From a virus, in the IMG/VR virus record IMGVR_UViG_3300030380_000495, positions 1,944 to 24,158 of that record: a stretch of DNA of 22,215 nucleotides. One strand, written 5' to 3'. This document shows positions 1 to 14,300 of this stretch, one piece after another. A program made the translations under genes and the position numbers. Under the pieces are notes generated by a model. It was not told the origin of the DNA, did not search any database, and worked only from the letters and a program-made list of their open reading frames with translations. Numbering within the stretch: position 1 is the first letter of the stretch; every line of letters starts with the position of its first letter.

Positions 1-99
1 GATACATTCCCAACGCTTACAGACAACGGAAGCGGTGGTAACAATGGAACAATGACAAATATGACAAGCGGAAATATAGTAACAGACGTACCTACATAA
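1..99 (+). CDS. C-terminal end of a LamG-type appendage protein (partial)
   Basis: Only the last 32 codons and the TAA stop are in the window; the reading frame is open from base 1. The visible tail, starting DTFPTLTDNGSGGNNG and ending in TDVPT, is almost the same as the C-terminus of the next gene (754-846). This gene is therefore very likely a paralogue of that LamG-domain protein. It ends 9 bases before the next start codon, which fits a tandem gene duplication within one operon. A role as tail fibre or receptor-binding protein is inferred from the paralogue and from the virion-gene context; nothing of its own lectin domain can be seen. Nucleotide identity to the paralogue is low at synonymous positions, so this is not a recent copy or an assembly duplicate. 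Confidence 0.75.
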   Translation, partial: DTFPTLTDNGSGGNNGTMTNMTSGNIVTDVPT

Positions 100-108
100 A
101 CTAAACAT

Positions 109-846
109 ATGTCAAACTACTACCGATCCATATTAAACGTTCAAGGCTCGTCTTTTTCTAATACCAAGAGCATATTGCTTGACGGTGTAGATGACTATGT
201 ACAAGTAGCAGACGCTGATAATTTATCTTTTGGAGATGGTACTACAGATTCACCTTTTAGTATTTCTGCTTGGATTAAAATTGGTCAAACAACTACACAA
301 GGAATTGTTTCTAAATACGGCACAAATAATGTAAAAAGAGAATATTTGTTTCAAATTACTGCAAGTAAAATAAAACTTACGCTTATATCTTTAGGTGGCG
401 CAACTAATTTTGCAACAGGAAATACTGCCTTATCTTTAAATACTTGGCATCACGTTGCTGTTACATATGACGGTAGCGGAGGTTCTACTGCATACAATGG
501 AATTACGCTATATGTCAACGGTGTTGCTGAGACTCCAACAACAGGAGGTGGCTCTTATACCGCAATGACTAATACTGTAACAGATGTTGAATTAGGTAGG
601 TACGCAACTAGAGAACTGAACGGAGCAATGGATGAGGTAGCGATATTTTCTTCAGAACTTTCTGCAAGTGATATAACAAGCATATACAATGGTGGTGAAC
701 CTAATGACATAAGCAGTCTTTCTCCTCTTAGTTGGTGGAGATGCGGCGACGGAGATACCGCGCCGACTCTAACCGATAACGGTAGTGGAGGCAATAACGG
801 AACAATGACAAACTTTAGTACATTCTCAACTGATGTACCAACATAA
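109..846 (+). CDS. LamG / concanavalin A-like domain protein, probable tail appendage
   Basis: A 245-aa protein that is nearly all one LamG (laminin G, concanavalin A-like) beta-sandwich, roughly residues 21-195. Hallmarks seen are LDGVDDYV near residue 23, FSISAWI near 50, WHHVAVTYDG from W113, LYVNG, and GAMDEVAIFSSELS from G172 followed by ITSIYNGG. Such domains bind carbohydrates, and in phages they are common on fibres or decoration proteins that touch host surface glycans. The last 30 residues after WWRCGDG form a separate Gly/Asn/Thr-rich tail shared with the gene upstream. There is no signal peptide or membrane segment. The start at 109 follows an A-rich leader without Shine-Dalgarno sequence, as elsewhere in this window. 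The fold assignment is secure; receptor binding is inferred, and a capsid decoration role is an alternative. Confidence 0.85.
   Translation: MSNYYRSILNVQGSSFSNTKSILLDGVDDYVQVADADNLSFGDGTTDSPFSISAWIKIGQTTTQGIVSKYGTNNVKREYLFQITASKIKLTLISLGGATNFATGNTALSLNTWHHVAVTYDGSGGSTAYNGITLYVNGVAETPTTGGGSYTAMTNTVTDVELGRYATRELNGAMDEVAIFSSELSASDITSIYNGGEPNDISSLSPLSWWRCGDGDTAPTLTDNGSGGNNGTMTNFSTFSTDVPT
754..846 (+). repeat. Shared C-terminal module of the two tandem LamG genes (second copy; first copy at 1-99)
   Basis: The peptide encoded here (DTAPTLTDNGSGGNNGTMTN, ending TDVPT) matches the one at 1-99. Over the first 20 codons 19 residues are identical, yet 13 of those 19 use a different synonymous codon. 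It is a diverged protein repeat under selection, not a DNA-level direct repeat. The copies differ by a two-residue length change and by sequence in the stretch just before TDVPT. Confidence 0.85.
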
Positions 847-859
847 AAACGAATAAAAA

Positions 860-1120
860 ATGAGTAAAAGAATAGCAGAAACATACGCAACAATTAACAT
901 AACAGATTTAGGATTGATTGACTTTTCACAAATAGGAGAGACATCCGAAAACACAATACGAAAATCCTTAGATGATTCACAGTTTGTAATTAAGTGGGAT
1001 TCAGAACCAAGATTCATAACTGACGGAACAGTTACGCCCTTAGAGGTAATGACACACGAGCAGGCCCTAATTCTTATGGCTACCCCGGAGTGGAGTGAGC
1101 CTATACCTGTGGAAGAGTAA
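860..1120 (+). CDS. Small hypothetical phage protein (86 aa)
   Basis: An 86-aa, acidic, soluble protein with no cysteine and no membrane segment. It begins MSKRIAETYATINITDLGLI and ends in an acidic PEWSEPIPVEE tail. The start at 860 is preceded by an A-run (gaataaaaa) and lies 13 bases after the LamG gene, so the two are probably co-transcribed. Similar short proteins with a conserved 'DFSQIGETSENTIRKSLDD' segment are, from memory, common in marine Bacteroidota phage genomes next to tail-fibre genes, but I know of no assigned function. A structural minor component or an appendage chaperone are both possible. Its stop codon lies inside the arms of a weak terminator-like hairpin, so it is probably the last gene of its transcription unit. 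Confidence 0.7.
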   Translation: MSKRIAETYATINITDLGLIDFSQIGETSENTIRKSLDDSQFVIKWDSEPRFITDGTVTPLEVMTHEQALILMATPEWSEPIPVEE

Positions 1121-1136
1121 GCCCTCTTTTTTTTTT
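1113..1136 (+). terminator. Candidate weak intrinsic terminator after the 86-aa gene
   Basis: AAGAG (1113-1117) can pair with CTCTT (1124-1128) around a 6-base loop, with two extra G-T wobble pairs possible outside. An unbroken run of ten T follows at 1127-1136. The stem is short and AT-rich, so strength is doubtful. The position directly after a stop codon (1118-1120) and before a promoter-like element supports the call. Confidence 0.45.
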
Positions 1137-1137
1137 G

Positions 1138-1147
1138 TTTATCTTTG
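1138..1147 (+). promoter_or_regulatory. Bacteroidota-type -7 promoter element (TTTATCTTTG)
   Basis: TATCTTTG at 1140-1147 is a full match to the Bacteroidota -7 consensus TAnnTTTG. It lies 17 bases before the ATG at 1165, at the largest intergenic gap in the window (44 bases). No convincing -33 TTG was found at the usual spacing; a T-tract lies immediately upstream instead. The 10-mer differs by one base from the element at 8251-8260. It would drive the connector and tail genes. Confidence 0.5.
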
Positions 1148-1161
1148 TGTAAAGAATACAC
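1147..1161 (+). other. Short inverted repeat in the 5' leader of the 243-aa gene
   Basis: GTGTA (1147-1151) and TACAC (1157-1161) are reverse complements around AAGAA. The repeat ends 3 bases before the ATG at 1165. It could form a small hairpin at the ribosome entry site or be a dyad for a regulator; a chance match of this length is also plausible. Confidence 0.3.
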
Positions 1162-1164
1162 GAG

Positions 1165-1896
1165 ATGATTAACTCAGTACGCAATACAGTTCTATCCATA
1201 CTGAATAAAAATAATTACGGATATATTTCTCCTTCAGATTTTAACTTGTTTGCAAAGCAAGCTCAGTTAGATATATTTGAGAACTACTTCTTTGATTACA
1301 ACTATCAGATAAATAAAGAGAACGCTAGACAGTCTGGCACAGGTTACGCTGATCTAAAGCAGAATGATGAGGAGGTTATAGATTCTTTCTCAGTAACATC
1401 AAACCTAACAGTTGTAGCAGCAACAAATACATTTACATTACCTTCTGATTGGTATCTATTAAATAGTATTTTTTACGATGCTCAAGCAACACCTGCTGTT
1501 CCATTAAGGCAGATGGAGAGAGTATCTCAAAAGAAGATTAGATTGCTTTTGAATTCAAATATTACTTCTCCAAACACTTTGTATCCAGCTTATACTATGG
1601 AGGGAAATATATTGACAGCATATCCAGTAACAATAAATACTCAAGATGATGTGGTGTGTCAATATATTAGATACCCTAAAGATCCTAAGTGGACATATGT
1701 CGATGTGCCTACCGCAACTGGAGAGCCATTGTTTGATTCTACAGCGGCAGACTATCAAGACTTTGAGATTCCTATTTCGGATGAGCCTACTCTAGTGGTT
1801 AGAATATTAGAGTACGCTGGGTTATCTATAAGAGAGAGTGATGTTGTACAAGTAGCATCAAGTATGGACAATAGAGAAACTGCTTCAGAAAAATAA
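1165..1896 (+). CDS. Putative head-tail connector / ring protein (243 aa)
   Basis: A 243-aa soluble protein. Its N-terminus (INSVRNTVLSILNKNNYGYISPSDFNLFAKQAQLDIFENYF, residues 2-42) is a helical pattern that I associate with the connector or tail-tubular proteins of crAss-like and related Bacteroidota podoviruses. The middle, residues 70-170, is rich in beta-forming segments (ATNTFTLPSDWYLLNSIFYD). It is followed after 5 bases by another connector-like gene and then by the long tail-stabilisation gene, the usual order for portal-vertex ring proteins. Function is inferred from position and recalled family pattern; no catalytic motif is visible. It is the first gene after a promoter-like element, and its ATG follows a short leader containing a small inverted repeat. 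It contains one cysteine. Confidence 0.6.
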   Translation: MINSVRNTVLSILNKNNYGYISPSDFNLFAKQAQLDIFENYFFDYNYQINKENARQSGTGYADLKQNDEEVIDSFSVTSNLTVVAATNTFTLPSDWYLLNSIFYDAQATPAVPLRQMERVSQKKIRLLLNSNITSPNTLYPAYTMEGNILTAYPVTINTQDDVVCQYIRYPKDPKWTYVDVPTATGEPLFDSTAADYQDFEIPISDEPTLVVRILEYAGLSIRESDVVQVASSMDNRETASEK

Positions 1897-1901
1897 TAAT
1901 T

Positions 1902-2825
1902 ATGGCTTATATATCAGCATATCAATATTACGAAAATGGTGGAGCTGCACCGGAGAATGCCAACTGGGGTTCATATCAATACATATCTTTACAAGACATT
2001 GTGAACAACTTCTTGCTGATGTATGATGGTAATCATTCTTTAGTTAATAACGAGGAGAGGTATAAGATATTGTTCCATGCAAAGAGAGCAGTTCAAGAAT
2101 TAAACTACGATGCGTTTAAGGAGATTAAAATTTTAGAGTTGGACGTATGCGATAGTCTACGTTTTGTTCTTCCTCCTGACTACGTCAATTGGGTTCGAGT
2201 GTCTATGTACAAGGATAATGTGTTGATGCCTCTTACTGAAAACATTCAGACCAACTATAGCGATGCATATCTTCAAGATAATAATTGTAGGATTTTATTT
2301 GATCAGGATGGAAATGTTTTGAAACCAGAGTACTCAAACTTAGATATTGAGAGAATCACAAGTCAGCAGAAGAGTATATACTTAAATGAGAACAGTCCCT
2401 TTGATCAGATGCTAGGATACTGTTGTGATGACTATTGGTATTTCGATTATGCTATTGGAGCAAGGTATGGTCTCAACACAGAAACAGCAAACATTAACCC
2501 TACGTTTAAAATTGACAATAAAGGTGGTGTCATAAACTTTAGTTCTGGTATGGCAGGTGAACTGTGCATATTGGAGTATGTCAGCGATGGCTTATACAAT
2601 GGAGATGATTCTCAGATTACAGTAAACAAGTTGTTTGAGAGTTATGTGTATGCTTACATAAAGTATGAGATACTTACAAATAAGTTAGGTGTTCAAGAGT
2701 ATGTGGTAGCACGAGCAAAGAAAGAAAAGACTGCGCTTCTTAGAAACGCTAAGATTAGAATCAGCAACATTCACCCAGGTAGACTATTGATGAACCTGCG
2801 TGGACAAAGCAAGTGGATAAAATAA
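1902..2825 (+). CDS. Putative connector / tail ring protein (307 aa)
   Basis: A 307-aa protein without signal peptide or membrane segment. Features seen are an N-terminal aromatic stretch (YISAYQYYENGGA), then a helical segment with NNEERYKILFHAKRAVQELNYD near residues 48-70, then LRFVLPPDYVNWVRVSMY near 86-103. The C-terminal helix is rich in basic residues (VARAKKEKTALLRNAKIRISN). The pattern 'LPPDYVNW.RV' between a helical N-terminus and a helical C-terminus recalls the gp4/gp11-like connector and tail tubular proteins of podoviruses, but I assign it mainly by its place between a connector-like gene and the muzzle-type gene. The stop is separated from the next ATG by one base, so translation of the two is probably coupled. 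It has five cysteines, including an adjacent pair. Confidence 0.6.
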   Translation: MAYISAYQYYENGGAAPENANWGSYQYISLQDIVNNFLLMYDGNHSLVNNEERYKILFHAKRAVQELNYDAFKEIKILELDVCDSLRFVLPPDYVNWVRVSMYKDNVLMPLTENIQTNYSDAYLQDNNCRILFDQDGNVLKPEYSNLDIERITSQQKSIYLNENSPFDQMLGYCCDDYWYFDYAIGARYGLNTETANINPTFKIDNKGGVINFSSGMAGELCILEYVSDGLYNGDDSQITVNKLFESYVYAYIKYEILTNKLGVQEYVVARAKKEKTALLRNAKIRISNIHPGRLLMNLRGQSKWIK

Positions 2826-2826
2826 A

Positions 2827-5800
2827 ATGAAAATAGAAAGAAGTTTTGTTAGGGGTCGCATGAATAAAAGTGTTGACGAAAGACTCTTGCCTCAAGGCGA
2901 GTATGTTGACGCAATGAACATCCGACTAGGGTCTACAGAAGAAAGTGAGATAGGTGCAATAGAAAATGCTAGAGGTAATGAGCTTATCGCTGAGGTAAAG
3001 TATAGTGGTCAGGCTCTATCTTCTCAAGCAGTGTGCCTAGGGTCTCTTGAAGATTCTGAGAACGAAACAATCTATTGGTGCGTACACGATCCAAACAACA
3101 CACCAAGTGCAACCAACAAGGTGGATTTAATTGTCTCTTATGACGCTTTAAATGATGTGTTGATATATCATGTGATATCTACCGATGATGGTGGTGGTGT
3201 AAACACAGCCTTAAACTTTAGTAAAACATATCGGGTAAATGCAATGACATTTATTGATGGTCTATTATTTTTTACAGACAACAATAATCAACCGATGCGT
3301 ATAAATGTAGATAGAGTTTACAATGAGCCTTCGGTAAATGATTTGCTTGTTATTGTACAGCCTCCATCTGAGTCTCCAACTGTTTCTTTGCAAACTATTC
3401 CTGGACAAGAAAATTATATGGACACTAGATTCATATCGTTTGCATACAGATACAAGTATCGAGATGGTGAGTACTCTGCATTGTCTCAGTTCTCTGAGAT
3501 AGCATTTGACCCTAAACCATTTTCTTTAAGCGTTGACACTTATCAAAATGAAGGAATGGTCAATGAGTTTAACTCTGCCGCTGTGGGCATAAATACTGGT
3601 GATGAGAATGTTACTGAGATTGATGTGGTTTTTAAACTATCAAATCAATCAGTAATTAATGTCATAGAGAAGTTTAATAAAGAATCTCAAGGGTGGCAAG
3701 ATAATCAGACATATACTATAAATTTTAACAATCGTAAAATATACACCACTCTAGGTACAAATGAAATCCTTAGAGTATTTGACAATGTGCCACGAAAAGC
3801 ACAGGCTCAAACTATAATGGGCAATAGACTAATGTATGGTAACTATGTCGATGGTTACGACTTAATTGATTCTAATGGTAATGATTGTTTGTTGTTATAC
3901 AATACAGAATTAGTTAGTGAAGATTTAGTGCCAATAGAACTAGGAGTTTCATTTGATCCATTTGATTTTACAATAGACCCTGCTGTAACTAGAACAGTTG
4001 CTGAAGGTGAAATAGATATTGATTGTAGTACTATTGCTTCAAATTTAGTAGAGGGAGCAAGTCTTGATTTTACAATTAGAATATCTCATGATAGTTTTTC
4101 TGGAGCAGGTGCGCCTAGCACAACACAAGATCCTTTTACAATTACATTTTCTGTAGTGTTAGATCAGCCATATGCAAATATAACTAACTTGGTTGCTAGT
4201 ACTGTATTTACCGAAGCTCTTGAAGGTGTTACAATACCAACTGATTTAACTCAATGTGGCACTACTAGCCAAGGCTTCTCTACTACCGATCAATTTAACT
4301 GTACTATACAATCTCCTTTAGACCCGTCAATAACCTGGAACAAAGACATGAGTAGTCCTAATACGACAGTTGGTGTACCAATTAGTGCTTCTGTTGTAAG
4401 TACCACTACCATTAGACTTACATTGATTGCGATGAGGTTTGTAGACTCTGCAAATCCAGGCGTATATTTGTATGAGTATTTTAAGGCTTCAGGTGCTGGT
4501 GCAACTTTTAATATTTCTGCTAATAGAAGAAGTCTTCATAGCGATAGAGATTATGAGGTAGGCATTGTTTATATGGATGAATTTAATCGTTCAACTACAG
4601 CGTTAGTAAGTACAGAGAATACTGTTTTTGTTCCTCCTGGTCAGTCTACAAGTAAGAATAAAATAAAGGTTACTATTCCTCCCAACCAAAAGCCACCATC
4701 ATGGGCAACGAGATATAAGTTTGTAGTAAAGCCATCTAGTATTGACTATGAAGTTATATATAGTGATTTGTTTTTTATAGACCCTGCTGACAACGCTACA
4801 TATGTAAAGTTAGAGGGAGATAATCAAACTAAAGCTGCTAAGGGAGATAGGCTTAGAGTTAAGAGAGATACCGATGGTGCATTGAGTGAGCGTATAGAGA
4901 CTGTAATTTTAGAGTTAGACTCTCAGCCTGCTGATTTTATTAGCGATAATACTGATCCTGATGGAGATGCTATTTCAGAGCCTGGTGGATTGTATATGAA
5001 AATCAAACCTAATGGGTTTAACACTCAGTATGACCCTAATAGTTTTTTTGGAGGCGAATCAGTAGTTAATAGTTCGGACGTTCCTAACAATGTAGGAGTC
5101 CCAGCTTCGGACAGACCTAACTATATGCCTGTTGTAAATTATTTATGTTCAATACCTAATCCTAATTTTGATTCTGTTGCTGGGCCATCATTGACAAACC
5201 TTCCCTTTTTACCTTGGACTATTCCGTCTAATAGTAGGGTTGTATTTAATATAAAGTTTAGAAGAAATAGAAGGGGTAATGCTTGTGACCAATATATTTA
5301 TAGGTTTCAGAAAGAATTTACTGCTTCCGAAGACTATTCAAGTTTACAGGCTTTTATAATAGGTCAGAATATAGATTTTAACACTGGAGAAAATGATCCT
5401 AATAATGGAGAAGGCCCTAATCAAAATGTTTTTGACCCTAATATTGTTCAGTTACCTTTTAATATATCTACATCTCCAGGTATGCCTATAGGCCCAGCCG
5501 CTACCCCAGCTGCTCCTGCTCCTATAGTAGGAACAAATCAATATGGTTTTGTGGGTAGTACTACTGATTGGACAGGCAGTGGTGGAAGTTCTACTGCGGA
5601 TTATTATGCTGGCAAACAATTTTTTCAAATAAGAAGTGGAATGCAGCCTTGCGATAGTGCAACAGTATTTAACCAGCCTAGACAATCGATAGTTAAAGCG
5701 TCCATTAGAGTATTTACCTCTGAGAACTTGTTGATATTTGAAACAACTCCCGTTGAGAGTGATGCAAATATATATTATGAGGGTAGTGATAGCTATGCAA

Positions 5801-7377
5801 TTACTAATGGTAATCATATGTCTGGAGGCTCTGCTGGTGATGTAAATCAAGTTATTAGTTCTGACCCTGCTCTTGCGGTTTCAGGAGTGGTAAACTTGTC
5901 CTTCTTTAATTGTTTCTCATTTGGCAATGGAGCTGAGAGTTATAAGATTAGAGATGGCTTGGCTACACCATCATTTAGATTGGGTGAGCGTACCACCGCA
6001 GTATCAGAGCAAGACTTTAAGGAAGCGCATAGATTTGCTGACATCACTTATAGTGGTATATACAATGAAGACACTAATGTTAACAGGCTAAATGAGTTCA
6101 ACCTAGGGACGGCTAATTTTAAAGAGTTAGAGAAGAGCTTTGGGCCTATACGAGTGCTTAATGCTAGGCAGAATGATATACTTACATTGCAAGAAGACAA
6201 GATATCATATGTGCTATCAAGTAAGACTTTACTCTCTAGTCCTTCTGGAGGAGGTAATGTTGCAGCAGTACCACAAGTTCTAGGCAATCAGGTGTCAAGA
6301 ATTGAGAAGTATGGTATTAGTAACAACCCGGAGAGTTTTGTGTCTTGGGGATTTGATAAGTTCTTTACTGATACTAAACGAGGGGCAGTGCTTCAGTTAA
6401 AAGGAAGCGGGCAACAAGAGCAACTTAATGTTATATCAGACACAGGAATGGGTTCATGGTTTAGGGATTATTTTATCCTTACTCCCAACACTCAAAAGTT
6501 AGGTGGATACGATCCATATATGAATGAGTATGTATTGTCTGGAAACTTAACTGCACTACCTGTAGATTTAGTAAAAGTCCCTTGTGGTTTAACGTATGAC
6601 GTTAGAGGCACTACAGAGCCTACCACTACATGGGAAGTATTGTTAGGAGAGGCAACAGGGGTGTCTACTGTAAATTGGACATCATCCTTACGAAGCCCTA
6701 CCGCAACACTTACTTTTAATGTTACTTATAATGGTGTGGTATACACATCAGGAGCAATAAATTCTAGTACCTCTGGAAGTTTTACATTTGATAAAAACAT
6801 TGGTGGTGTAAACACCGCACAAGTAGAAGTGTTGTTAAGTGAAAATGTAGCAGACTTTAGTGTCAACGTAGGATGCCCAGTTACCACAACGCTAAACATT
6901 ACTAAGGTTTGTTTAAATAGTAATGATAATGGTGGTAAATACATTCACAACGAATACTATTGGACTCAAGGAGACTATGATAGTCCAACGAGTAGCGACT
7001 TGGTTTTATTACAAGCGCAGGATAATAGTCCGATAAACTTTGCAATATCTGAATACGATACAATAAGTGGCCCTTCAGGTAGGGGAACTCTTCCTCCAAT
7101 ACCTTCAGTAGGTAATCCTGTTACAATTAGGATTCAATCTAGTCAAATAGGTTTTGATGACTTAGTGTTTGATCCTACTAAATATACATTAAGGTATCAT
7201 TTGGATTCTACACCATACCCTAATACTCCTAATGATATGGCTAACTTATTGGCAGCTTCAACAAATGGAACACCTTTGGTTAATCCTACAACAGGAGTCT
7301 ATTACTTTGATATTCCTTATCAACAGACCGGAACTTTCAAGCCTTACTTATATCTTATTTACGAATACATAACCTAA
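2827..7377 (+). CDS. Tail stabilisation / muzzle-type protein (1516 aa)
   Basis: A 1516-aa, beta-rich protein. The N-terminus FVRGRMNKSVDERLLPQGEY (residues 7-26) followed by DAMNIRLG is a signature I recognise from the 'stabilization protein' of crAss-like and marine Bacteroidota podoviruses, related in role to P22 gp10 and to the tail muzzle. Further typical blocks are RFISFAYRYKYRDGEYSALS at 202-221, DYEVGIVYMDEFNRST near 575-590, GISNNPESFVSWGFDKFF at about 1163-1180 followed by KRGAVLQLKG, and YDPYMNEYVLS near 1229. The first part and the GISNNPES part look like beta-propeller blades. Between them, roughly 380-550 and 930-1050, lie Thr/Ser-rich segments that may be inserted Ig-like domains. 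The protein would form the distal tail or its seal. It has 13 cysteines. The ATG follows the preceding stop after one base. The family call is good; exact placement in the tail is inference. Confidence 0.75.
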   Translation: MKIERSFVRGRMNKSVDERLLPQGEYVDAMNIRLGSTEESEIGAIENARGNELIAEVKYSGQALSSQAVCLGSLEDSENETIYWCVHDPNNTPSATNKVDLIVSYDALNDVLIYHVISTDDGGGVNTALNFSKTYRVNAMTFIDGLLFFTDNNNQPMRINVDRVYNEPSVNDLLVIVQPPSESPTVSLQTIPGQENYMDTRFISFAYRYKYRDGEYSALSQFSEIAFDPKPFSLSVDTYQNEGMVNEFNSAAVGINTGDENVTEIDVVFKLSNQSVINVIEKFNKESQGWQDNQTYTINFNNRKIYTTLGTNEILRVFDNVPRKAQAQTIMGNRLMYGNYVDGYDLIDSNGNDCLLLYNTELVSEDLVPIELGVSFDPFDFTIDPAVTRTVAEGEIDIDCSTIASNLVEGASLDFTIRISHDSFSGAGAPSTTQDPFTITFSVVLDQPYANITNLVASTVFTEALEGVTIPTDLTQCGTTSQGFSTTDQFNCTIQSPLDPSITWNKDMSSPNTTVGVPISASVVSTTTIRLTLIAMRFVDSANPGVYLYEYFKASGAGATFNISANRRSLHSDRDYEVGIVYMDEFNRSTTALVSTENTVFVPPGQSTSKNKIKVTIPPNQKPPSWATRYKFVVKPSSIDYEVIYSDLFFIDPADNATYVKLEGDNQTKAAKGDRLRVKRDTDGALSERIETVILELDSQPADFISDNTDPDGDAISEPGGLYMKIKPNGFNTQYDPNSFFGGESVVNSSDVPNNVGVPASDRPNYMPVVNYLCSIPNPNFDSVAGPSLTNLPFLPWTIPSNSRVVFNIKFRRNRRGNACDQYIYRFQKEFTASEDYSSLQAFIIGQNIDFNTGENDPNNGEGPNQNVFDPNIVQLPFNISTSPGMPIGPAATPAAPAPIVGTNQYGFVGSTTDWTGSGGSSTADYYAGKQFFQIRSGMQPCDSATVFNQPRQSIVKASIRVFTSENLLIFETTPVESDANIYYEGSDSYAITNGNHMSGGSAGDVNQVISSDPALAVSGVVNLSFFNCFSFGNGAESYKIRDGLATPSFRLGERTTAVSEQDFKEAHRFADITYSGIYNEDTNVNRLNEFNLGTANFKELEKSFGPIRVLNARQNDILTLQEDKISYVLSSKTLLSSPSGGGNVAAVPQVLGNQVSRIEKYGISNNPESFVSWGFDKFFTDTKRGAVLQLKGSGQQEQLNVISDTGMGSWFRDYFILTPNTQKLGGYDPYMNEYVLSGNLTALPVDLVKVPCGLTYDVRGTTEPTTTWEVLLGEATGVSTVNWTSSLRSPTATLTFNVTYNGVVYTSGAINSSTSGSFTFDKNIGGVNTAQVEVLLSENVADFSVNVGCPVTTTLNITKVCLNSNDNGGKYIHNEYYWTQGDYDSPTSSDLVLLQAQDNSPINFAISEYDTISGPSGRGTLPPIPSVGNPVTIRIQSSQIGFDDLVFDPTKYTLRYHLDSTPYPNTPNDMANLLAASTNGTPLVNPTTGVYYFDIPYQQTGTFKPYLYLIYEYIT

Positions 7378-7381
7378 AGAT

Positions 7382-8245
7382 ATGGCAATACCAGTTATAC
7401 CCCCAAGCACCGACCCTAGTCTTCAGGCGTACACTCTAACTTATAGTGAGAATGTTAAAGGATTTCCTTCGTTTTATTCTTACATACCTGAGCAGATACA
7501 GGGTATGAATCAATACCTATACACTTTTAGTAATGGTAGTCTATATAGACACAACTCTAAGACCACAAATAGATGTACGTTCTATGGCACGTTTACACCT
7601 TGTAGTGTGCAAAGTATTATAAATGTTGAGCCTACTGTAGTTAAGTTGTTTAAGACCATTGAGTTGGAGTCTGATGATAGTTGGTCATTTGCTGGGCAAA
7701 CAGATTTGGAGAGTGGTAATATTGAGGGTACAAGTGACGATCCTCACATCACACCTCCACCCTCATACGCAGGTGAGAATTACTTTGAACTAAAAGAGGG
7801 TAGTTACTTTTCATACATCAGAGGTATCAATTCAGTACCTGTGCTAAATGCTGAACTAGCACTTAGGTCAGCCCAAGGTATTGGAGCAATAACATCTGTA
7901 GATACATCAACACCATCAGCCATTGTTATTACATATGCTGCGAATGTCTTAGACTCTATCATAAGCATTGGAGACTTGTTTTATTTTGTTCAGTCTAACG
8001 CCACTGTCTTGGGGGGAAAGATTACAGCAGTCAACTTTACCAACAATACAATCACAGTAGACTCTACGATTACAGGTGGTAGTTCTGCAATGGTGGCAAC
8101 AAACTATTCATTTTACATTAAGAACGCTGTCGCTGAGTCTCATGGACTTCGTGGCTACTACCTAGAGTTTTTGGTAGAGAACGTAAGCATTTCAAAAGTA
8201 GAGCTGTTTACTCTGTCATCAGATGTCATGAAAAGTTTTCCATAA
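7382..8245 (+). CDS. Tail-associated structural protein, companion of the muzzle-type protein (287 aa)
   Basis: A 287-aa protein. After a Pro/Ser-rich start it has YSENVKGFPSFYSYIPEQ (residues 21-38), then QYLYTFSNGSLYRH and later NRCTFYG, followed by VVKLFKTIELES. From memory, the 'Y.E.VKG..SF.S..P E...YTF.NG.LY.H' block is a widespread phage tail module, often at the C-terminal end of stabilisation proteins. Here it is a separate gene 4 bases downstream of the 1516-aa gene, which suggests a split of what is elsewhere one polypeptide. The C-terminal half (about 150-287) is beta-rich, with repeated short hydrophobic strands. It has two cysteines and no membrane segment. The likely role is assembly with the muzzle protein at the tail tip. 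Confidence 0.6.
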   Translation: MAIPVIPPSTDPSLQAYTLTYSENVKGFPSFYSYIPEQIQGMNQYLYTFSNGSLYRHNSKTTNRCTFYGTFTPCSVQSIINVEPTVVKLFKTIELESDDSWSFAGQTDLESGNIEGTSDDPHITPPPSYAGENYFELKEGSYFSYIRGINSVPVLNAELALRSAQGIGAITSVDTSTPSAIVITYAANVLDSIISIGDLFYFVQSNATVLGGKITAVNFTNNTITVDSTITGGSSAMVATNYSFYIKNAVAESHGLRGYYLEFLVENVSISKVELFTLSSDVMKSFP

Positions 8246-8250
8246 TTTTT

Positions 8251-8260
8251 TTTAACTTTG
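8251..8260 (+). promoter_or_regulatory. Bacteroidota-type -7 promoter element (TTTAACTTTG) giving a nearly leaderless mRNA
   Basis: TAACTTTG at 8253-8260 fits the TAnnTTTG consensus exactly and follows a run of eight T (8246-8253). The next ATG is at 8266, five bases downstream, so a start at the usual distance would fall at or within a few bases of the initiation codon. A -33 TTG is not obvious. It would separately drive the GNAT-like gene and the ejection-protein genes. Confidence 0.55.
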
Positions 8261-8265
8261 CATTA

Positions 8266-8676
8266 ATGCAATTCACTATTCGACCCCTTGAATATAAAGA
8301 CTATGACGAGCTTTTATTAAAGTGGTGGAAAGATTGGCGAGTTGTTGCACCGAGTAGAGACTTCTTGCCTAGCAATGGTTTAGGAGGATACATAGTATAC
8401 GATGGAGACGTTCCTGTATGCGCTGGATTTATTTATAACACAGATTCAAATGTTGCTTGGTGTGAATTTATTGTATCAAACTTCGACTATAAAGATAAGG
8501 ATCGTAAGAAAGAATGCTTAAATCTTTTAGGTTCTAAGGTGTCAATGGTAGCAAAGGATGCGGGTAAGAGTTATCTGATGACAATGCTAAAAAGTAAATT
8601 ATTGATGGATGTTTGTGCAGATCAAGGATATATGAAAATGAGTGGAGGGTATACTCAAATGACAAAAATTTTATAA
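8266..8676 (+). CDS. GNAT-like (N-acetyltransferase fold) protein, degenerate acyl-CoA site
   Basis: A 136-aa protein with the strand/helix order of a GNAT fold: IRPLEYKDYDELLLKWW (residues 5-21), GYIVYDGDVPVCAGFIYNT (41-59) as the paired central strands, AWCEFIVSN (64-72), a helix at 79-99, then YLMTML and a C-terminal MSGGYTQMTKIL. Segments such as FLPSNGLGG followed by VPVCAGF are typical of small phage acetyltransferase-like proteins. The classic acyl-CoA loop motif (Q/R-x-x-G-x-G/A) is not evident where expected, after the fourth strand; KDKDRKKECLNLLGSK stands there. Catalysis is therefore uncertain, and a structural or binding role is possible. It has four cysteines in 136 residues, in contrast to the cysteine-free genes that follow one base later. 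Its target is unknown. Confidence 0.65.
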   Translation: MQFTIRPLEYKDYDELLLKWWKDWRVVAPSRDFLPSNGLGGYIVYDGDVPVCAGFIYNTDSNVAWCEFIVSNFDYKDKDRKKECLNLLGSKVSMVAKDAGKSYLMTMLKSKLLMDVCADQGYMKMSGGYTQMTKIL

Positions 8677-8677
8677 T

Positions 8678-9556
8678 ATGGGAGCAGCAGCAGTAGCACA
8701 ATTAGTACCATTGGTAGCAACTACAGGGATGAGTTTTTACCAAATGGCTCAAGCAAAAGAATCACAAAGAAAAGGACGTAAAAAGTTTAATGAAGGAGTT
8801 CAAAAGACTAGAGACCTTCTTGAGCAGAATGTAATGGAAGAGCTTAATGTTAATGATGAGGCTACTAGATTAAAGGGTCAGCAAAATCTTGCAGCACTTC
8901 AGCAATTAACTGACGTAACTGCCGGAGCAGGACAACGTGCGGTGCTAGGTGCAACACCTGGACTGATGACAGCCGCTGATGCCGCGAATGAAGCAGAGCG
9001 AGCAAATCTACAGCAAAGACTTGAGGCTAGACAAAAAGCGATTTTAAGTCAAGATGAGGTTAATCGCCAAGGTAAGATGGATTTAGAATTAGATCTCGCA
9101 GCTGTGGCAAAAGAACAGCAATTGGCTTCTGAAGCACAAAAGAATGAGATGATGGGGCAAGTGGTTAAAGGCGCAGGAGAAATAGCCACTAAAGGAATAG
9201 AGGCTTCTGCTTTGTATCGACAAGATGGCAATGCTCGTAGGGCAGGTAAATTTGTTGACTCATTAGGAAAGGATCAGTTAGGTGGTCTATCTAGAAGTCA
9301 AGCAATTGATGCTGTGATGGAGCAAAACTATGATCGAGGAGTTATAAATAATGCTAGGCGCGCAGGCTTTGTTCCTGATGAAGGTTTATTTCAAAATTAT
9401 AGAAGCAACCTATTTGGAGCAGATAAGGAATTATTAAAAACTAGAGGCATTTTAAGCAACGATGCTAGAAATGATATACTTGGTAATGTACAAGGACAAT
9501 ATACATCTATGGATCAAGCAAATAATTACTTCCCTAGTTGGTTAACTAAATCATAA
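8678..9556 (+). CDS. Putative internal virion (ejection) protein, gp14-like position (292 aa)
   Basis: A 292-aa Ala/Gln/Glu-rich helical protein with no cysteine. Residues 2-24 (GAAAVAQLVPLVATTGMSFY and following) form a hydrophobic helix that could insert in a membrane. Residues about 35-165 are long amphipathic helices likely to make coiled coils, with a small Gly/Ala hinge (TAGAGQRAVLGATPGLM) near 80-97. A second helical part runs to the C-terminus. Small size, hydrophobic N-terminus, coiled coil and first place before two larger helical proteins match T7 gp14 and its relatives, which form the outer-membrane part of the ejection conduit. Sequence similarity to T7 gp14 itself is not claimed. 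The ATG is one base after the preceding stop. Confidence 0.6.
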   Translation: MGAAAVAQLVPLVATTGMSFYQMAQAKESQRKGRKKFNEGVQKTRDLLEQNVMEELNVNDEATRLKGQQNLAALQQLTDVTAGAGQRAVLGATPGLMTAADAANEAERANLQQRLEARQKAILSQDEVNRQGKMDLELDLAAVAKEQQLASEAQKNEMMGQVVKGAGEIATKGIEASALYRQDGNARRAGKFVDSLGKDQLGGLSRSQAIDAVMEQNYDRGVINNARRAGFVPDEGLFQNYRSNLFGADKELLKTRGILSNDARNDILGNVQGQYTSMDQANNYFPSWLTKS

Positions 9557-9565
9557 CAAAACATA

Positions 9566-11368
9566 ATGGCAGATTTTTTTAAGTACGTTGGCAAGGCTGA
9601 TAGAGGAATACAGGATTGGTCTAAGATAGGTAAAGACATTAGCGATGGCCTTAAAGAGGTTACTGACAAGAGACAGGCTGAACGTGCTAGAATTGACAAG
9701 CTAACTTCTGATGCAATCAATGAGGTTAATAATGTTCAGTTGGGTCAGAACAAAACCTTCAATCAATTTTTACTTAATGGATCGGGACAAACAAAAGAGT
9801 TCTTGTTGATGCAAGAGAAACTTTTGAAGCAGGGTGTGCTAAAGCCACAAGACTATCTAAACTCTAGACAAATTATTTCTGATGACTGGGCAAATCTAAG
9901 CGAGGCTGCTAAGTCTTTTAATCAGGACTATGCTGAGTCTATGAAAAGACTTCAAGATGGTGAGGCTGCAATGCAAGAGATGTATCAGAATGAGAAGTAT
10001 GATGCGTTTATGAACATTCAAGACAAGGATATATTTGTAAACCCTGTAGATGGTAGAATATATTTAACAACCACCGATGGTGATGGTAACATTGAAAGAG
10101 ACCCATCATCTATGTTGAATGTAAATGCAATCAACGCTAGGCGTAAGGACAAGATAAATAAGTTCAACGTACAAGCAGAAGTGCAAAAGGCAACAGGCGC
10201 ATTAGGAGAGGTTGTAAAGGCTTTAAATGCCGATGGTGTCATTACTCGTACCGACAAGAGATTAAATGAGATGATGCTCATCGGTGGGGTTGAGACAACA
10301 TTTGATGATGCCAAGAATGACATTATTAATTCATTGATGACATCTCCTCGTAACAATGCTAGTATCCTTACCGATGATATTGGAGGCTACACATTTACAG
10401 AGGTAGAGTCTGAGGCTGGAGGCAAGGTGATATACCTAAAGGAGAATGGTATGGGTCTTCTAGAACCACAACTTACTGAGGAGCAGTTGGGTGTGGTAAG
10501 AAACAATCTTGACATGGAGATTGAGAAGCAGTTAGGATTCAAAGAGACGAGTTCGTACCAGATAGACAAAAATATAAAACTACAAAGAGAGAGATTATAT
10601 AAGCCTGACCCAGGTAAAGTAGATGTAAAAAATCTTACTACGATGTGGAGAGACCTTGGTACAACAAGCGACCCTGCTAAAAAGAAAAACTTAGCTGAAT
10701 CTGTTATCATGGCGGCTAACCAAGGTAAGAAAAAGGGAGATGATATGGTAATGAGAATGATATTCAATGATGACAATAGTATTACATTTATCAACTCAAA
10801 TTCATCTAAAAACTTTACTACTTCTCCTATTAGTGATGACGCTGTTTCATGGATGAATTTAGGAACAGAAATATTTGGAGCATTAGGTGATAAAGACATG
10901 AAAGAATTGCTAGGGGGTACAACTACAATAAACACAAACTTCAAAGGCATTGAAGCAGGAAGAGAAGGTTTTGCTGAGTATACCGAAACACCAACGGAGG
11001 CATATGTAAGAAATGTTATAGAACAAAACCCTACCGACATCGTTAAAGATGAAGAAACAACAGCTGATAATGTAAATGCACTATTGGCGGCTATGGGTAT
11101 ATCATCAAAATACAGAGCTGATTGGTTTTATGATGCAAAGGATTATGTTGAAATATTAAATAATGACGATGAGGTGGTGGCTAAAATAAACTTAAAAAAT
11201 AAAAATGCTTATAAATCATTCCTCAACACCATAGCAGAATTAGGCGCAAAAGAATTAAGCGAAACAGAGTTATTTAGTCAGACTAAATCTTACAGAAAGA
11301 AGAAGTCTAAAAAGAAAACATCAGCTCCTAAAAAGGAAGTTGAAAAAGGACGAGCAGCTAGCTTTTAA
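9566..11368 (+). CDS. Putative internal virion (ejection) protein, gp15-like position (600 aa)
   Basis: A 600-aa, largely helical and hydrophilic protein with no cysteine. It opens with MADFFKYVGKADRGIQDW, followed by a helical region to about residue 160. Around residues 150-175 is a short beta-turn segment (DIFVNPVDGRIYLTTTDGDG), and the remainder is mixed helical. The extreme C-terminus is strongly basic (SYRKKKSKKKTSAPKKEVEK, near 571-590) and may touch DNA or the capsid interior. No enzyme motif is visible. Its place between the 292-aa and 3587-aa genes and its cysteine-free composition suggest the middle, periplasmic component of an ejection apparatus, as T7 gp15 is. I do not recognise a named family. 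It is probably in one operon with both neighbours, with gaps of 9 and 10 bases. Confidence 0.55.
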   Translation: MADFFKYVGKADRGIQDWSKIGKDISDGLKEVTDKRQAERARIDKLTSDAINEVNNVQLGQNKTFNQFLLNGSGQTKEFLLMQEKLLKQGVLKPQDYLNSRQIISDDWANLSEAAKSFNQDYAESMKRLQDGEAAMQEMYQNEKYDAFMNIQDKDIFVNPVDGRIYLTTTDGDGNIERDPSSMLNVNAINARRKDKINKFNVQAEVQKATGALGEVVKALNADGVITRTDKRLNEMMLIGGVETTFDDAKNDIINSLMTSPRNNASILTDDIGGYTFTEVESEAGGKVIYLKENGMGLLEPQLTEEQLGVVRNNLDMEIEKQLGFKETSSYQIDKNIKLQRERLYKPDPGKVDVKNLTTMWRDLGTTSDPAKKKNLAESVIMAANQGKKKGDDMVMRMIFNDDNSITFINSNSSKNFTTSPISDDAVSWMNLGTEIFGALGDKDMKELLGGTTTINTNFKGIEAGREGFAEYTETPTEAYVRNVIEQNPTDIVKDEETTADNVNALLAAMGISSKYRADWFYDAKDYVEILNNDDEVVAKINLKNKNAYKSFLNTIAELGAKELSETELFSQTKSYRKKKSKKKTSAPKKEVEKGRAASF

Positions 11369-11378
11369 AAGTTAAATA

Positions 11379-14300
11379 ATGAACGAAGAAGCAATTAAAG
11401 TAGCATACGAATTATTTGTAGCGGATGGGTATACTAAAAGTATAGACGAGTTTAAAACACTAATGCTAAATAATGAAGATGGTAGGCAAGTAGCATTTGA
11501 TTTATTCACAGCCGATGGTTATACCAAAGGTATAGATGAATTTGGTGTACTTATGGGAGCATCTCCTGTAAAAAAAAAAGAAGATACGGTATCCGTATTG
11601 GAGGATGGTTCTTCGGGCTTACAAGAGCCTAGTGTTCAGGTTGAGGAAGAGCAGATTGACTTTGACCCTACTGCAGGAGTAACAGCACTAAAAGAAGCAG
11701 GGTTACAACTACCCACACCACCACCACGAGATTTTACACAGCCTTTCTTAGGCCCGGTTGGGATGGACGATCCTATGTCCGTTGAAGAGCAACAGGAGCT
11801 TTTTGAAGGATACGTTTCTCCATCTAAAGTAGTCAAGTCTGAGGAGACACTTCAAAAAGAGGCGCAAAGATTAAGGCGTGAGGCTGGCAAACTAACAGGA
11901 GTAAACCTTGCCAACATTAGAAAAGAACAAGGTGAAGAAGCAGCAGCAGCTGCTATTGCAGAACGAGAGTCTTTGATGAATAGGGCTGACAAATTACTAG
12001 AAGGTAAAGATGAAAAGTTTGAGCAAGAAAAAGAAAAGCGAAACTTAGAATATCAAACACAAAAAGAAAAGTCAGATAAAGATAGAAAGATTGGTTATGT
12101 TTTAAAAAACCTAGATGATGCTCAAGCAGCAGCAGTATTTCAAAACCTTGCATCTACAAGAGGAGAAATTGCAGATGATGAGCTACAACAGTTGGTAGAT
12201 TTAGTTGATAAAAAAACAATAGAGAAGTATGGTCAAGAGGAGTATGACCTTGTTCAAAAGATTGGAGGTAATGTATTAGCTGAAGATTTATTTTATGGAG
12301 GCAACATAAGCACTTCGCCATCAGTTGTTGATGAGTTAGTTGTTGAAGGCGATGAAATCGCTACAGTATCAAACTTAAACAATGAGTTTGATGGAACACC
12401 ATTTACTTTTTCCAAATCAATATTGGGATCAGACGCAGTTGAGGTTAGCGTACTTGATATTTCAGGAGTACCTATTAATAGTAAGATTGTACGGTTAGAT
12501 GATGGGGCTAAAGCTAGTCAACAGTTAAGAGACTTTATGGCAAAGTCCAATCTCTCAAAAGGCAACAAAGAATTTTTGGAAGGTAAGATTAATGGCAAAG
12601 ACATCAGTAATCTTCCAATGGACAAGAAACAATTAATCAACTATAAGTATATGCTAGAGAACAAAGATAAGTTCTCAGCAGGCAAGGGTGCAGGATTTAG
12701 TATGGATGCAAATGCTATCATGCGTTTTGTAAATGAGAACCCTGACTTCTTTCCACCTGAAGAATTGCAAAGCATAAAGTTGCAGCTTGATGAAGCATTG
12801 GCAAACCAATACAAAGAGGATGAGCAACTTGAAGGTTCATTCCTTGGTTCATTAGGAGAATCCTTTTTAAAGGGAGCAACGCAGACATCTAAGTTTACTA
12901 CCAACCTTGGTATTGATATAGGAGGGGCTTTGATGCCTAGTATGTTTATGCCTTCAAATTCATTTAGTGCTATAAACTTTGACGAGAATGGTAATCGATT
13001 ATCGGATAGTGAGGTTATAGATAGAGTAAAGAAAGAAGGCAAGAGAGAGATGATAGCAGCAATGGATAACGCTGTTGAATCATCCTTTACTGGTACTACC
13101 CAGGCGTGGATGAATAGTGATGAGAGAAATGATTTAGCAAAAGCATTAAACTTTGTGTTTGAAAGTCTTGGAGTTGTGGCTTCAGTAGGGGCTAATAGAT
13201 TAGCACTCGCACCCAAAGCCGCTAAAACACTAAGTGGTCTAGCATTCTTTGCATATGCTGCCAATGGTATCGAAGATGAAATGGCAGGTACTGAGTACGA
13301 TGGATTGTCTGAGTGGAAAAAGAAACTTATATCATTCCCATATGGCGTAATGATTGGTCAGTTAGAAAAACTAGGATGGGAGGCATCAACAGGTGCGTTT
13401 GGAAATAAAGTGTTCGACAAGATATCTAGGGGAATAATTAGTAAGACGATGAAGAGCGTCCCTAAAAATGCATCTCCAGAAGTTATTAAAACAGCAATAG
13501 AAAATAATACAAAGGCAGCAATAGCAGATGGTACAATTAAAATTATTAGTGGTGCTTTAAGTGAAGGATTGGTTGAGGGTACGCAAGAACTTGGCGATGT
13601 TACTTTAAAGAATATAGTCAATGGCATAATGGAGAAGGATTACTTTGCTAACGCTCCTGATTTAAGCACTAAGAAAGGGTGGTTAGAAACCATTAAACAA
13701 ATGAAAGAGTCTGGCTACTATGGCTTACTAGCGGGTGGTAGTTCGGCAGGTGGTGGTGGTATCATTCAAGGAACTAAAAAGCGACTACAAAGAGATGCTG
13801 ACATCCGAGAGTACAATGAACAAAAGCAGGCCCATACCGATAAGACTCTTAGAGAGAAATTAATTTTTAATATTAATACAAGGCAACAGGCTGGGGAAAT
13901 AACTGCCGAACAAGCAGAGGCTCAAAAGGAGCAGGTTGCTGAGGATGCTGCTACCTTCGAACAGATACCTGATGAGGGGCTATCTAATAAAAATAAGATA
14001 GAATCATTTGTTTTAATTACTGAAAGAAACAATCTAGAGAAAGAGATTGCCGGGAAGAATGAAGAGCTTGTTACGAAACAAAGGGATCGTATACGAGATA
14101 TTAATGCACAACTAACAATAATAGGAACACAAGATGCCACTACAGAGCAAGAAGCAAGCGACTTGGATGAGGATCAACAAGCCCCAGATGTACAAGAAAT
14201 GGAGGAAGGAACACCCCAACCAGAACCTGAGCAAGTTACCGCTGAAGAAGTTGAGGTCAAAGAAGAATTAAAACCTACCGAGGAGCAACGTGAGAAGCTA

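What the first reader, a model, noticed from the sequence alone, without database searches (positions are those of the whole stretch)
1138..8260. Two near-identical promoter 10-mers behind T-tracts, at the two largest gaps
TTTATCTTTG (1138-1147) and TTTAACTTTG (8251-8260) differ at one base. Both match the Bacteroidota -7 consensus TAnnTTTG, both follow runs of 8-10 T, and they lie in the 44-base and 20-base gaps, the largest in the window. They divide the genes into appendage, tail and ejection units. A clear -33 TTG is missing at both, so the T-tract may replace it or a phage factor may assist.
Basis: partly seen in the sequence, partly recalled or inferred. Interest (0 to 1): 0.55.

Follow-up and report, generated by a model that had tools for sequence, protein, structure and literature searches.

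The report
Phage promoters fused to transcription stops
Two short DNA signals in a virus of Bacteroidota-type bacteria are very probably late-gene promoters: relatives keep them at the same two gene boundaries, one welded onto a transcription stop signal and the other so close to its gene that the message would have almost no leader.

Summary
Both sites recur at the same boundaries in distant relatives. Site 1 (1140-1147): 67 of 67 distinct regions upstream of the adaptor gene carry a box; in 63 a hairpin plus T-run lies just before it and its stem covaries, so the T-tract is mainly the U-tract of a terminator fused to the promoter. In this window the hairpin is weak (-4.9 kcal/mol). Site 2 (8253-8260): 94 of 103 distinct regions after the muzzle gene carry a box, 3-8 nt before the next ATG in 90 of 94, predicting a leaderless or nearly leaderless mRNA. 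The missing -33 is ordinary for Flavobacterium (PMC6847099); an AT-rich patch at -20 to -16 is present instead. No sigma-70 region 4 or Rpb1-type polymerase domain was found in the six records, which may be incomplete. Transcription itself is untested.

The parts
109..846 (+). LamG / concanavalin-like appendage protein gene, upstream unit
   Evidence: PF13385, E 2e-24
860..1120 (+). 86-aa ORF, last gene before site 1
   Evidence: ORF; no Pfam or PHROG match
1111..1130 (+). weak terminator-like hairpin GGAAGAG(TAAGCC)CTCTTTT; the loop contains the stop codon of the 86-aa ORF
   Evidence: MFE -4.9 kcal/mol, against -13.9 to -20.8 in seven chosen relatives and -2.6 (5' arm lost) in the near-twin L005
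1127..1136 (+). T10 tract: terminator U-tract and AT-rich -18 promoter region; ends 3 nt before the box
1140..1147 (+). -7 box TATCTTTG, site 1
   Evidence: a TAnnTTTG box in 67 of 67 distinct upstream regions
1152..1153 (+). predicted transcription start, leader 12-13 nt
   Evidence: 4-5 nt after the box, as in F. johnsoniae (PMC6847099); not measured
1165..1896 (+). SU10-adaptor / ring-like virion gene, first gene of the unit read from site 1
   Evidence: phrog_14543 E 7e-44; PF24175 26.4 bits, just below its cut-off of 27
1902..2825 (+). virion structural gene
   Evidence: phrog_13977
2827..7377 (+). large virion structural gene
   Evidence: phrog_14478, E 4e-227
7382..8245 (+). muzzle-like gene, last gene before site 2
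   Evidence: PF25729 crAss_MUZ_C
8246..8252 (+). T-run immediately upstream of the site-2 box
8253..8260 (+). -7 box TAACTTTG, site 2
   Evidence: a box after the muzzle stop in 94 of 103 distinct regions
8265..8266 (+). predicted transcription start, 0-1 nt before the ATG (leaderless)
   Evidence: box-to-ATG 5 nt; spacing rule from PMC6847099; not measured
8266..8676 (+). GNAT-fold protein gene, first gene after site 2
   Evidence: AlphaFold2 model pLDDT 91.3 and Foldseek matches to GNAT acetyltransferases; no sequence match in Pfam or PDB
8678..9556 (+). downstream gene of the site-2 unit
   Evidence: ORF; no PHROG match
9566..11368 (+). downstream gene of the site-2 unit
   Evidence: phrog_35506
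11379..22142 (+). giant 3587-aa ORF, perhaps an internal or ejected virion protein (inferred from place only); no RNA polymerase DxDGD motif

Best explanation
The two 10-mers are the -7 elements of late promoters read by the host's primary RNA polymerase (the sigma-ABfr / RpoD type of Bacteroidota), each starting a new late transcription unit. Site 1 is a fused terminator-promoter: the hairpin and T-tract end the upstream message, and the same T-tract supplies the AT-rich -18 region of the promoter whose TATCTTTG begins 3 nt later, so the adaptor-to-muzzle genes are transcribed independently of the upstream head and appendage genes. In the window's own lineage the hairpin is eroded, probably by the appendage genes now upstream, while T-tract and box remain. 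Site 2 lies in the 20-nt gap after the muzzle gene and sits so close to the next ATG that the RNA should start 0-1 nt before it here (0-4 nt in most relatives), giving a leaderless or nearly leaderless message for the GNAT-like gene and the genes behind it. Shown by sequence: enrichment, positional conservation, covarying hairpin, narrow spacings. Inferred: which polymerase, the start points, the termination and the late timing.
For: Enrichment: TAnnTTTG 42 found against 5.6 expected and TA[AT]CTTTG 25 against 0.83 in non-coding DNA within 60 nt upstream of starts in six records; in 160 gaps, 40 and 24 observed against at most 12 and 2 in 500 shuffles, and 12 and 2 on the opposite strand. Site 1: a box in 67 of 67 distinct regions, a hairpin in 63 of 67 (shuffle control: mean 7.6, largest 13, of 81 rows), 47 distinct arm pairs, T-tract ending 3 nt before the box in 45 of 63; a 6-bp core fully paired in 60 of 66, 23 distinct 3' cores, 1.4 expected, several pair types at 5 of 6 positions; also in MW202828, Cellulophaga phi40:1 and Flavobacterium elemoE. 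Site 2: 94 of 103 distinct regions, found with a coding pattern that does not contain the box; the box stays in six contigs where a different protein of 172-174 aa follows. Among 55 rows with 7-nt spacing six box positions are fixed by the pattern used, but the free positions -10 and -9 are also 95% T and 100% C. AT content at -20..-16 is 95% in 62 phage sites, 84% in 252 sites of bacterial genomes, 66-72% at -70..-40. Leader rule and weak -33: PMC6847099 section 14.
Against: No RNA data were available for this phage. In the window itself the hairpin is weak, and L005, L065, phi19:3 and Gundel have none by the rule used. Site-2 exceptions: L216, L225 (TATCTTTA) and L244, L253, L282 (TAAATTTATG) lack the box, four more regions had no called start, G009 has its box 39 nt from the called start, and phi40:1 has an imperfect copy. 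Phage boxes differ from boxes in bacterial genomes at -4 (T in 46 of 62 against 63 of 252) and at -9 (C in 39 of 62 against 66 of 252), which a purely host-type promoter would not need. The six records are related to one another, so the enrichment P values overstate independence.
Confidence: 0.8

Rival explanations
1. The boxes are late promoters that need a phage-encoded activator or sigma-like factor, in the manner of T4 late promoters, which have only a -10-like element (T4 recalled).
For: No -33 TTG excess at phage sites (6 of 62, background about 7 of 62) while sites in bacterial genomes show a weak excess (51 of 252, background about 27); phage-specific T at -4 and C at -9. Two proteins with weak DnaA-C-like helix-turn-helix matches in the near-twin G023 could be regulators.
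Against: Sigma70_r4 (PF04545) matches 0 of 6 related records, while the control rang in 14 of 14 genomes, over the cut-off in 13; the records may be incomplete. The -7 box matches the F. johnsoniae consensus TAHHTTTG, and those promoters also lack a clear -33 (PMC6847099). The phage/bacterial difference at -33 is only P about 0.065.
Confidence: 0.14
2. A phage-encoded RNA polymerase, such as the virion polymerase of crAss-like phages, reads these sites.
For: The muzzle-like gene (PF25729) points to a crAss-like virion plan, and crAss-like phages are known to carry a virion polymerase (recalled).
Against: No DxDGD motif in the window's giant ORF, nor in the ORFs of 900 aa or more that were looked at (up to four each) in G002, G009, G013, G021 and G019; two isolated matches in G023 are not shared. 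PF00623 matches 0 of 6 records, control 14 of 14. The box equals the host-type consensus.
Confidence: 0.03
3. The boxes act in RNA rather than DNA, as translation-coupling or processing signals at gene junctions.
For: Site 2 lies exactly 7 nt from the ATG in 57 of 94 regions, which a ribosome-facing signal could explain.
Against: The same box lies 13-17 nt from the ATG at site 1 in 64 of 67 regions and 15-32 nt at many other sites; at site 1 it follows a terminator-like hairpin, where a new start is needed; the AT-rich patch at -18 fits a promoter.
Confidence: 0.03

Closest known systems
Bacteroidota primary-sigma (sigma-ABfr / RpoD) promoter, -7 TAHHTTTG with variable -33, as mapped in Flavobacterium johnsoniae (PMC6847099) and Bacteroides thetaiotaomicron (PMC7366714)
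   Same: -7 box, AT-rich patch near -18, position just upstream of gene starts, little or no -33 as in F. johnsoniae
   Different: phage sites prefer TATCTTTGT (C-9, T-4); predicted leader at site 2 is 0-1 nt here and 0-4 nt in most relatives, against a mean of 33 nt in F. johnsoniae; B. thetaiotaomicron does show a -33 box
Intrinsic (Rho-independent) terminator
   Same: in relatives a 7-14 bp stem, short loop and 6-11 T
   Different: the T-tract ends 2-8 nt before a promoter box in a conserved arrangement, so stop and start share DNA; in this window the stem is only marginal
Leaderless mRNA start
   Same: predicted start at or within a few nt of the ATG
   Different: inferred from box-to-ATG spacing only; Baez et al. 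conclude that leaderless translation cannot explain the lack of Shine-Dalgarno sequences in F. johnsoniae (PMC6847099)
T4-type late promoter (recalled)
   Same: a -7/-10 type element without an upstream hexamer, for late genes
   Different: matches the host-type consensus; no phage sigma factor found in six records

Membership tests
Bacteroidota sigma-ABfr promoter | -7 element TAHHTTTG | tested here: met
   TATCTTTG and TAACTTTG; enriched and conserved
Bacteroidota sigma-ABfr promoter | -33 element TTTG/TTG | tested here: not met
   absent at both window sites; TTG at -36..-32 in 6 of 62 phage sites, about background. Reported as much less evident in F. johnsoniae but present in B. thetaiotaomicron, so it does not define the class in Flavobacterium
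Bacteroidota sigma-ABfr promoter | AT-rich motif near -18 | tested here: met
   95% AT at -20..-16 in 62 phage sites, 93.5% in the 40 without a T5 tract, against 66% at -70..-40
Bacteroidota sigma-ABfr promoter | RNA start 4-5 nt after the box, made by host holoenzyme | not testable with these tools
   needs 5'-end mapping or in vitro transcription
Intrinsic terminator | GC-rich hairpin directly followed by a T-run, at the homologous place in relatives | tested here: met
   63 of 67 distinct regions; fully paired core in 60 of 66
Intrinsic terminator | the same in this window | tested here: inconclusive
   T10 tract with a 5-7 bp hairpin of -4.9 kcal/mol; the simple terminator scan of 1-12000 did not list it
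Leaderless mRNA | start codon at or within a few nt of the RNA 5' end | tested here: inconclusive
   box-to-ATG 3-8 nt in 90 of 94 relatives, 5 nt in the window; start not mapped
T4-type late promoter | phage-encoded sigma-like factor | tested here: inconclusive
   PF04545 matches 0 of 6 related records, control rang in 14 of 14; records may be incomplete and a divergent factor would be missed

The most novel reading that the evidence does not exclude
The fused element recycles polymerase: an RNA polymerase that releases its transcript at the T-tract stays on the DNA and is caught by the -7 box 3 nt downstream, so that upstream transcription feeds initiation of the adaptor unit and sets the ratio of virion proteins. 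The phage-preferred T-4 and C-9 and the leaderless site 2 would then be parts of one late expression programme tuned to hosts that lack Shine-Dalgarno sequences. Post-termination reinitiation by sliding polymerase has been described for E. coli polymerase (recalled); a dedicated, conserved element for it would be new as far as I know.
Probability: 0.1. Interest if true: 0.75.

Novelty: new variant of a known kind. Interest (0 to 1): 0.5.

Why it matters
It gives a concrete predicted late-promoter map for a large group of aquatic phages related to Callevirus, Elemovirus and Pachyviridae; the listings of my ten literature searches showed no mapped late promoter for them. It offers two sharply testable predictions: a shared terminator/promoter at the boundary before the adaptor gene, and a leaderless late transcript after the muzzle gene. 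The second would be a natural test of leaderless translation in bacteria that lack Shine-Dalgarno sequences. The consensus can also help to predict operons in uncultured relatives and to correct start codons.

Tried and rejected
Chance: rejected by enrichment and positional conservation. E. coli-type sigma-70 promoters and generic terminators: the simple scan of 1-12000 gave 57 against a mean of 41.3 (sd 7.1) and 5 against 5.7, and listed neither site. Third exact copy at 18473-18482 (-): in a coding region 99% identical over 200 nt in the near-twin, so its survival there says nothing; treated as chance. Phage polymerase: no DxDGD in the window's giant ORF, PF00623 in 0 of 6 records. The PF00940 search was uninformative because its controls did not ring. 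For G023, 20 early-region proteins were scanned against Pfam and 10 late-region ones against PHROGs, not all 56 called ORFs. Single-protein searches with the GNAT-like gene and the muzzle gene found only 3 and 5 relatives, so I used a DNA pattern for the muzzle C-terminus. Of 80 adaptor loci, 74 had enough upstream DNA and were used; six annotated records were added, chosen by me out of 87 that matched. With the window this made 81 rows, 67 distinct. At site 2, of 120 stretches 6 were dropped (5 too short, 1 out of frame) and 11 were duplicates. Of the four regions without a called start, three (L256, L265, L303) show TATCTTTG by eye but are not counted. A MAFFT alignment of 37 hairpins did not keep the arms in register, so pairing was counted from the T-run in a script. 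I first suspected a frameshift in the gene before the window; it is a run of N. Bacterial control set: 80 rpoD loci, mostly Flavobacteriia by title, with some Bacteroidales and one record titled Rokubacteria, none dropped. Literature: searches, seen as listings with abstract beginnings, showed no mapped late promoter for these phages; subscription papers are mostly not held. Papers opened: PMC6847099 (passages; section 14), PMC7366714 (passages), PMC12118408 (passages; nothing on phage promoters in them). From recall only: infection transcriptomes of phi38:1 and the virion polymerase of phi14:2 have been published; I saw neither paper here.
Full report
The window is positions 1944-24158 of a 24,158-base viral record. 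Its genes encode a LamG-type appendage protein (109-846), an 86-aa protein, an SU10-adaptor-like ring protein (1165-1896), two further virion proteins, a crAss-type muzzle protein (7382-8245), a small protein (8266-8676), two more genes and a giant 3587-aa ORF. The 87 matching records in the phage collection are from Flavobacterium (68), Cellulophaga (15), Tenacibaculum (2) and Maribacter (1) phages and one metagenomic circle, MW202828; those opened are classed as Callevirus (phi40:1), Elemovirus (elemoE, elemoF) and Pachyviridae (phi19:3, Gundel). The host is therefore very probably a Bacteroidota bacterium, most likely one of the Flavobacteriia; this is an inference.

TTTATCTTTG is at 1138-1147 and TTTAACTTTG at 8251-8260, in the 44-nt and 20-nt gaps, the two largest between the main ORFs. 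A third exact copy lies antisense in the giant ORF. Inside the window alone the 10-mer is not statistically striking with one mismatch allowed (13 against a mean of 8.1); TAnnTTTG is (40 against 24.3).

In non-coding DNA within 60 nt upstream of gene starts, TAnnTTTG occurs at 5.25 per kb against 0.70 in coding DNA (42 observed, 5.6 expected). TA[AT]CTTTG occurs at 3.12 per kb against about 0.10 (25 observed, 0.83 expected), and TTTA[AT]CTTTG 3 times against 0.08. In 160 such gaps 40, 24 and 3 were observed; 500 shuffles of each gap gave at most 12, 2 and 2, the opposite strand of the gaps 12, 2 and 0, and the reversed sequence 6, 0 and 0. The records are related and ORFs were called by a simple rule, so the P values overstate independence, but the direction is clear.

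Site 1 was followed through 74 of 80 relatives of the adaptor gene that had upstream DNA, plus the window and six annotated records. Of 67 distinct upstream regions, 67 carry TAnnTTTG (50 TATCTTTG, 16 TATATTTG, 1 TAACTTTG), 13-17 nt before the ATG in 64 of 67. In 63 of 67 a hairpin and T-run stand just before it, the window's weak one included, with the T-run ending exactly 3 nt before the box in 45 of 63. The stems covary: in 60 of 66 rows a 6-bp core next to the T-run pairs fully, with 23 distinct 3' cores and 1.4 expected by shuffling, and five of the six pair positions show several pair types. The same element stands before the adaptor gene in MW202828 (51% protein identity), Flavobacterium elemoE (40%) and Cellulophaga phi40:1 (36%). 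So in this family the T-tract is the U-tract of an intrinsic-terminator-like hairpin fused to the promoter.

In the window's own lineage this terminator is decaying. The window has only GGAAGAG(TAAGCC)CTCTTTT, -4.9 kcal/mol, against -13.9 to -20.8 in seven chosen relatives, and the near-twins L005 and G023 have lost the 5' arm (-2.6 for L005) while T-tract and box remain. The upstream neighbours there are LamG-type appendage genes, which probably moved in; this is inferred. L065, Gundel and phi19:3 have a box but no hairpin by the rule used, and in phi19:3 the preceding genes run on the other strand.

Site 2. In all six long records a TAnnTTTG box follows the muzzle stop, in G009 39 nt before the called start. 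After dropping 5 short and 1 out-of-frame stretch and 11 duplicates, 94 of 103 distinct regions have TAnnTTTG between the muzzle stop and the next ATG; in 13 the stop codon TAA is itself part of the box. Box-to-ATG distance is 3-8 nt in 90 of 94 and exactly 7 in 57. Exceptions: L216 and L225 have TATCTTTA, L244, L253 and L282 have TAAATTTATG, and four had no called start, three of which show TATCTTTG by eye. Phi40:1 has an imperfect copy. In six contigs the next gene codes for a different protein of 172-174 aa, judged from its N-terminus, yet the box stays. Among 55 regions with the 7-nt spacing, the two free positions inside the box are 95% T and 100% C, whereas the positions from -3 to +2 carry little information. 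The start codon is well supported because conserved residues follow it closely. The protein is predicted to have a GNAT fold (pLDDT 91.3; best Foldseek matches are acetyltransferases, E 6e-7), and its MW202828 homologue is annotated as an acetyltransferase subunit, although Pfam and PDB sequence searches gave nothing.

Mechanism. In F. [quoted passage not shown] B. thetaiotaomicron does show a -33 box (PMC7366714, passages read). By this rule site 1 starts at 1152-1153 with a leader of 12-13 nt, and site 2 starts at 8265-8266, that is 0-1 nt before the ATG. For a spacing of 7 nt the leader would be 2-3 nt. The missing -33 is thus ordinary. In 62 phage sites AT content at -20..-16 is 95% (93.5% in the 40 sites without a T5 tract), against 84% in 252 sites from 1.44 Mb of bacterial DNA around rpoD (80 loci, mostly Flavobacteriia by title) and 66-72% at -70..-40. 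The terminator's T-tract coincides with this -18 patch, which is what allows stop and start to be fused. Fused elements also occur in the bacterial set, less often (6 of 252 sites against 11 of 62 phage sites).

What remains open. Phage boxes differ from bacterial-genome boxes at -4 (T in 46 of 62 against 63 of 252) and -9 (C in 39 of 62 against 66 of 252), and lack the weak -33 excess of those sites (6 of 62 against 51 of 252, P about 0.065). The bacterial set surely includes false positives, so this may simply be the difference between strong and average promoters; a phage factor cannot be excluded. Sigma70_r4 and Rpb1 domain 2 match 0 of 6 related records, which may be incomplete, and the window's giant ORF lacks DxDGD. 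Transcription, termination and timing were not observed.

The T-tract and -33 reasoning should be replaced by 'terminator fused to an AT-rich -18 promoter' at site 1 and 'leaderless start' at site 2. I rate it a new variant of a known kind.

Noticed in passing
L004:931-938 (G000:C1:931-938, upstream of the window): Another TATCTTTG, 16 nt before an ATG, in front of an appendage-region gene; the matching site in G023 is at 12785.
   Followed up: partly
G023 gap 8827-8886 (L088): Strong terminator-like hairpin plus T8 followed by TAACTTTA, one base off the consensus; in MW202828 what looks like the corresponding gap has an intact TATCTTTG.
   Followed up: partly
L111:13408 (elemoE, QMP85336.1): The annotated start ATGCTTTATCTT contains the promoter box; the related elemoF (L113) suggests the true start is the ATGGATATA just after the box.
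   Followed up: partly
window 8259-8270: Perfect 12-bp palindrome TGCATTAATGCA across the end of the box and the start codon; also in the near-twin G023; not seen in the other rows.
   Followed up: no
window 8266-8676: GNAT-fold protein right after the muzzle gene in most of the relatives listed, replaced by a different 172-174-aa protein in six.
   Followed up: partly
L089:18480-18860 and L090:8189-8488 (both - strand, G023): Two proteins with weak DnaA C-terminal helix-turn-helix matches, below Pfam's cut-off; candidate regulators.
   Followed up: no
G002 (59105 bases): 77-base identical ends, so probably a complete circular or terminally redundant genome.
   Followed up: no
just upstream of window position 1 (L004): A run of N interrupts the LamG-type gene that reads into the window; an apparent frameshift there is an assembly gap.
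   Followed up: yes
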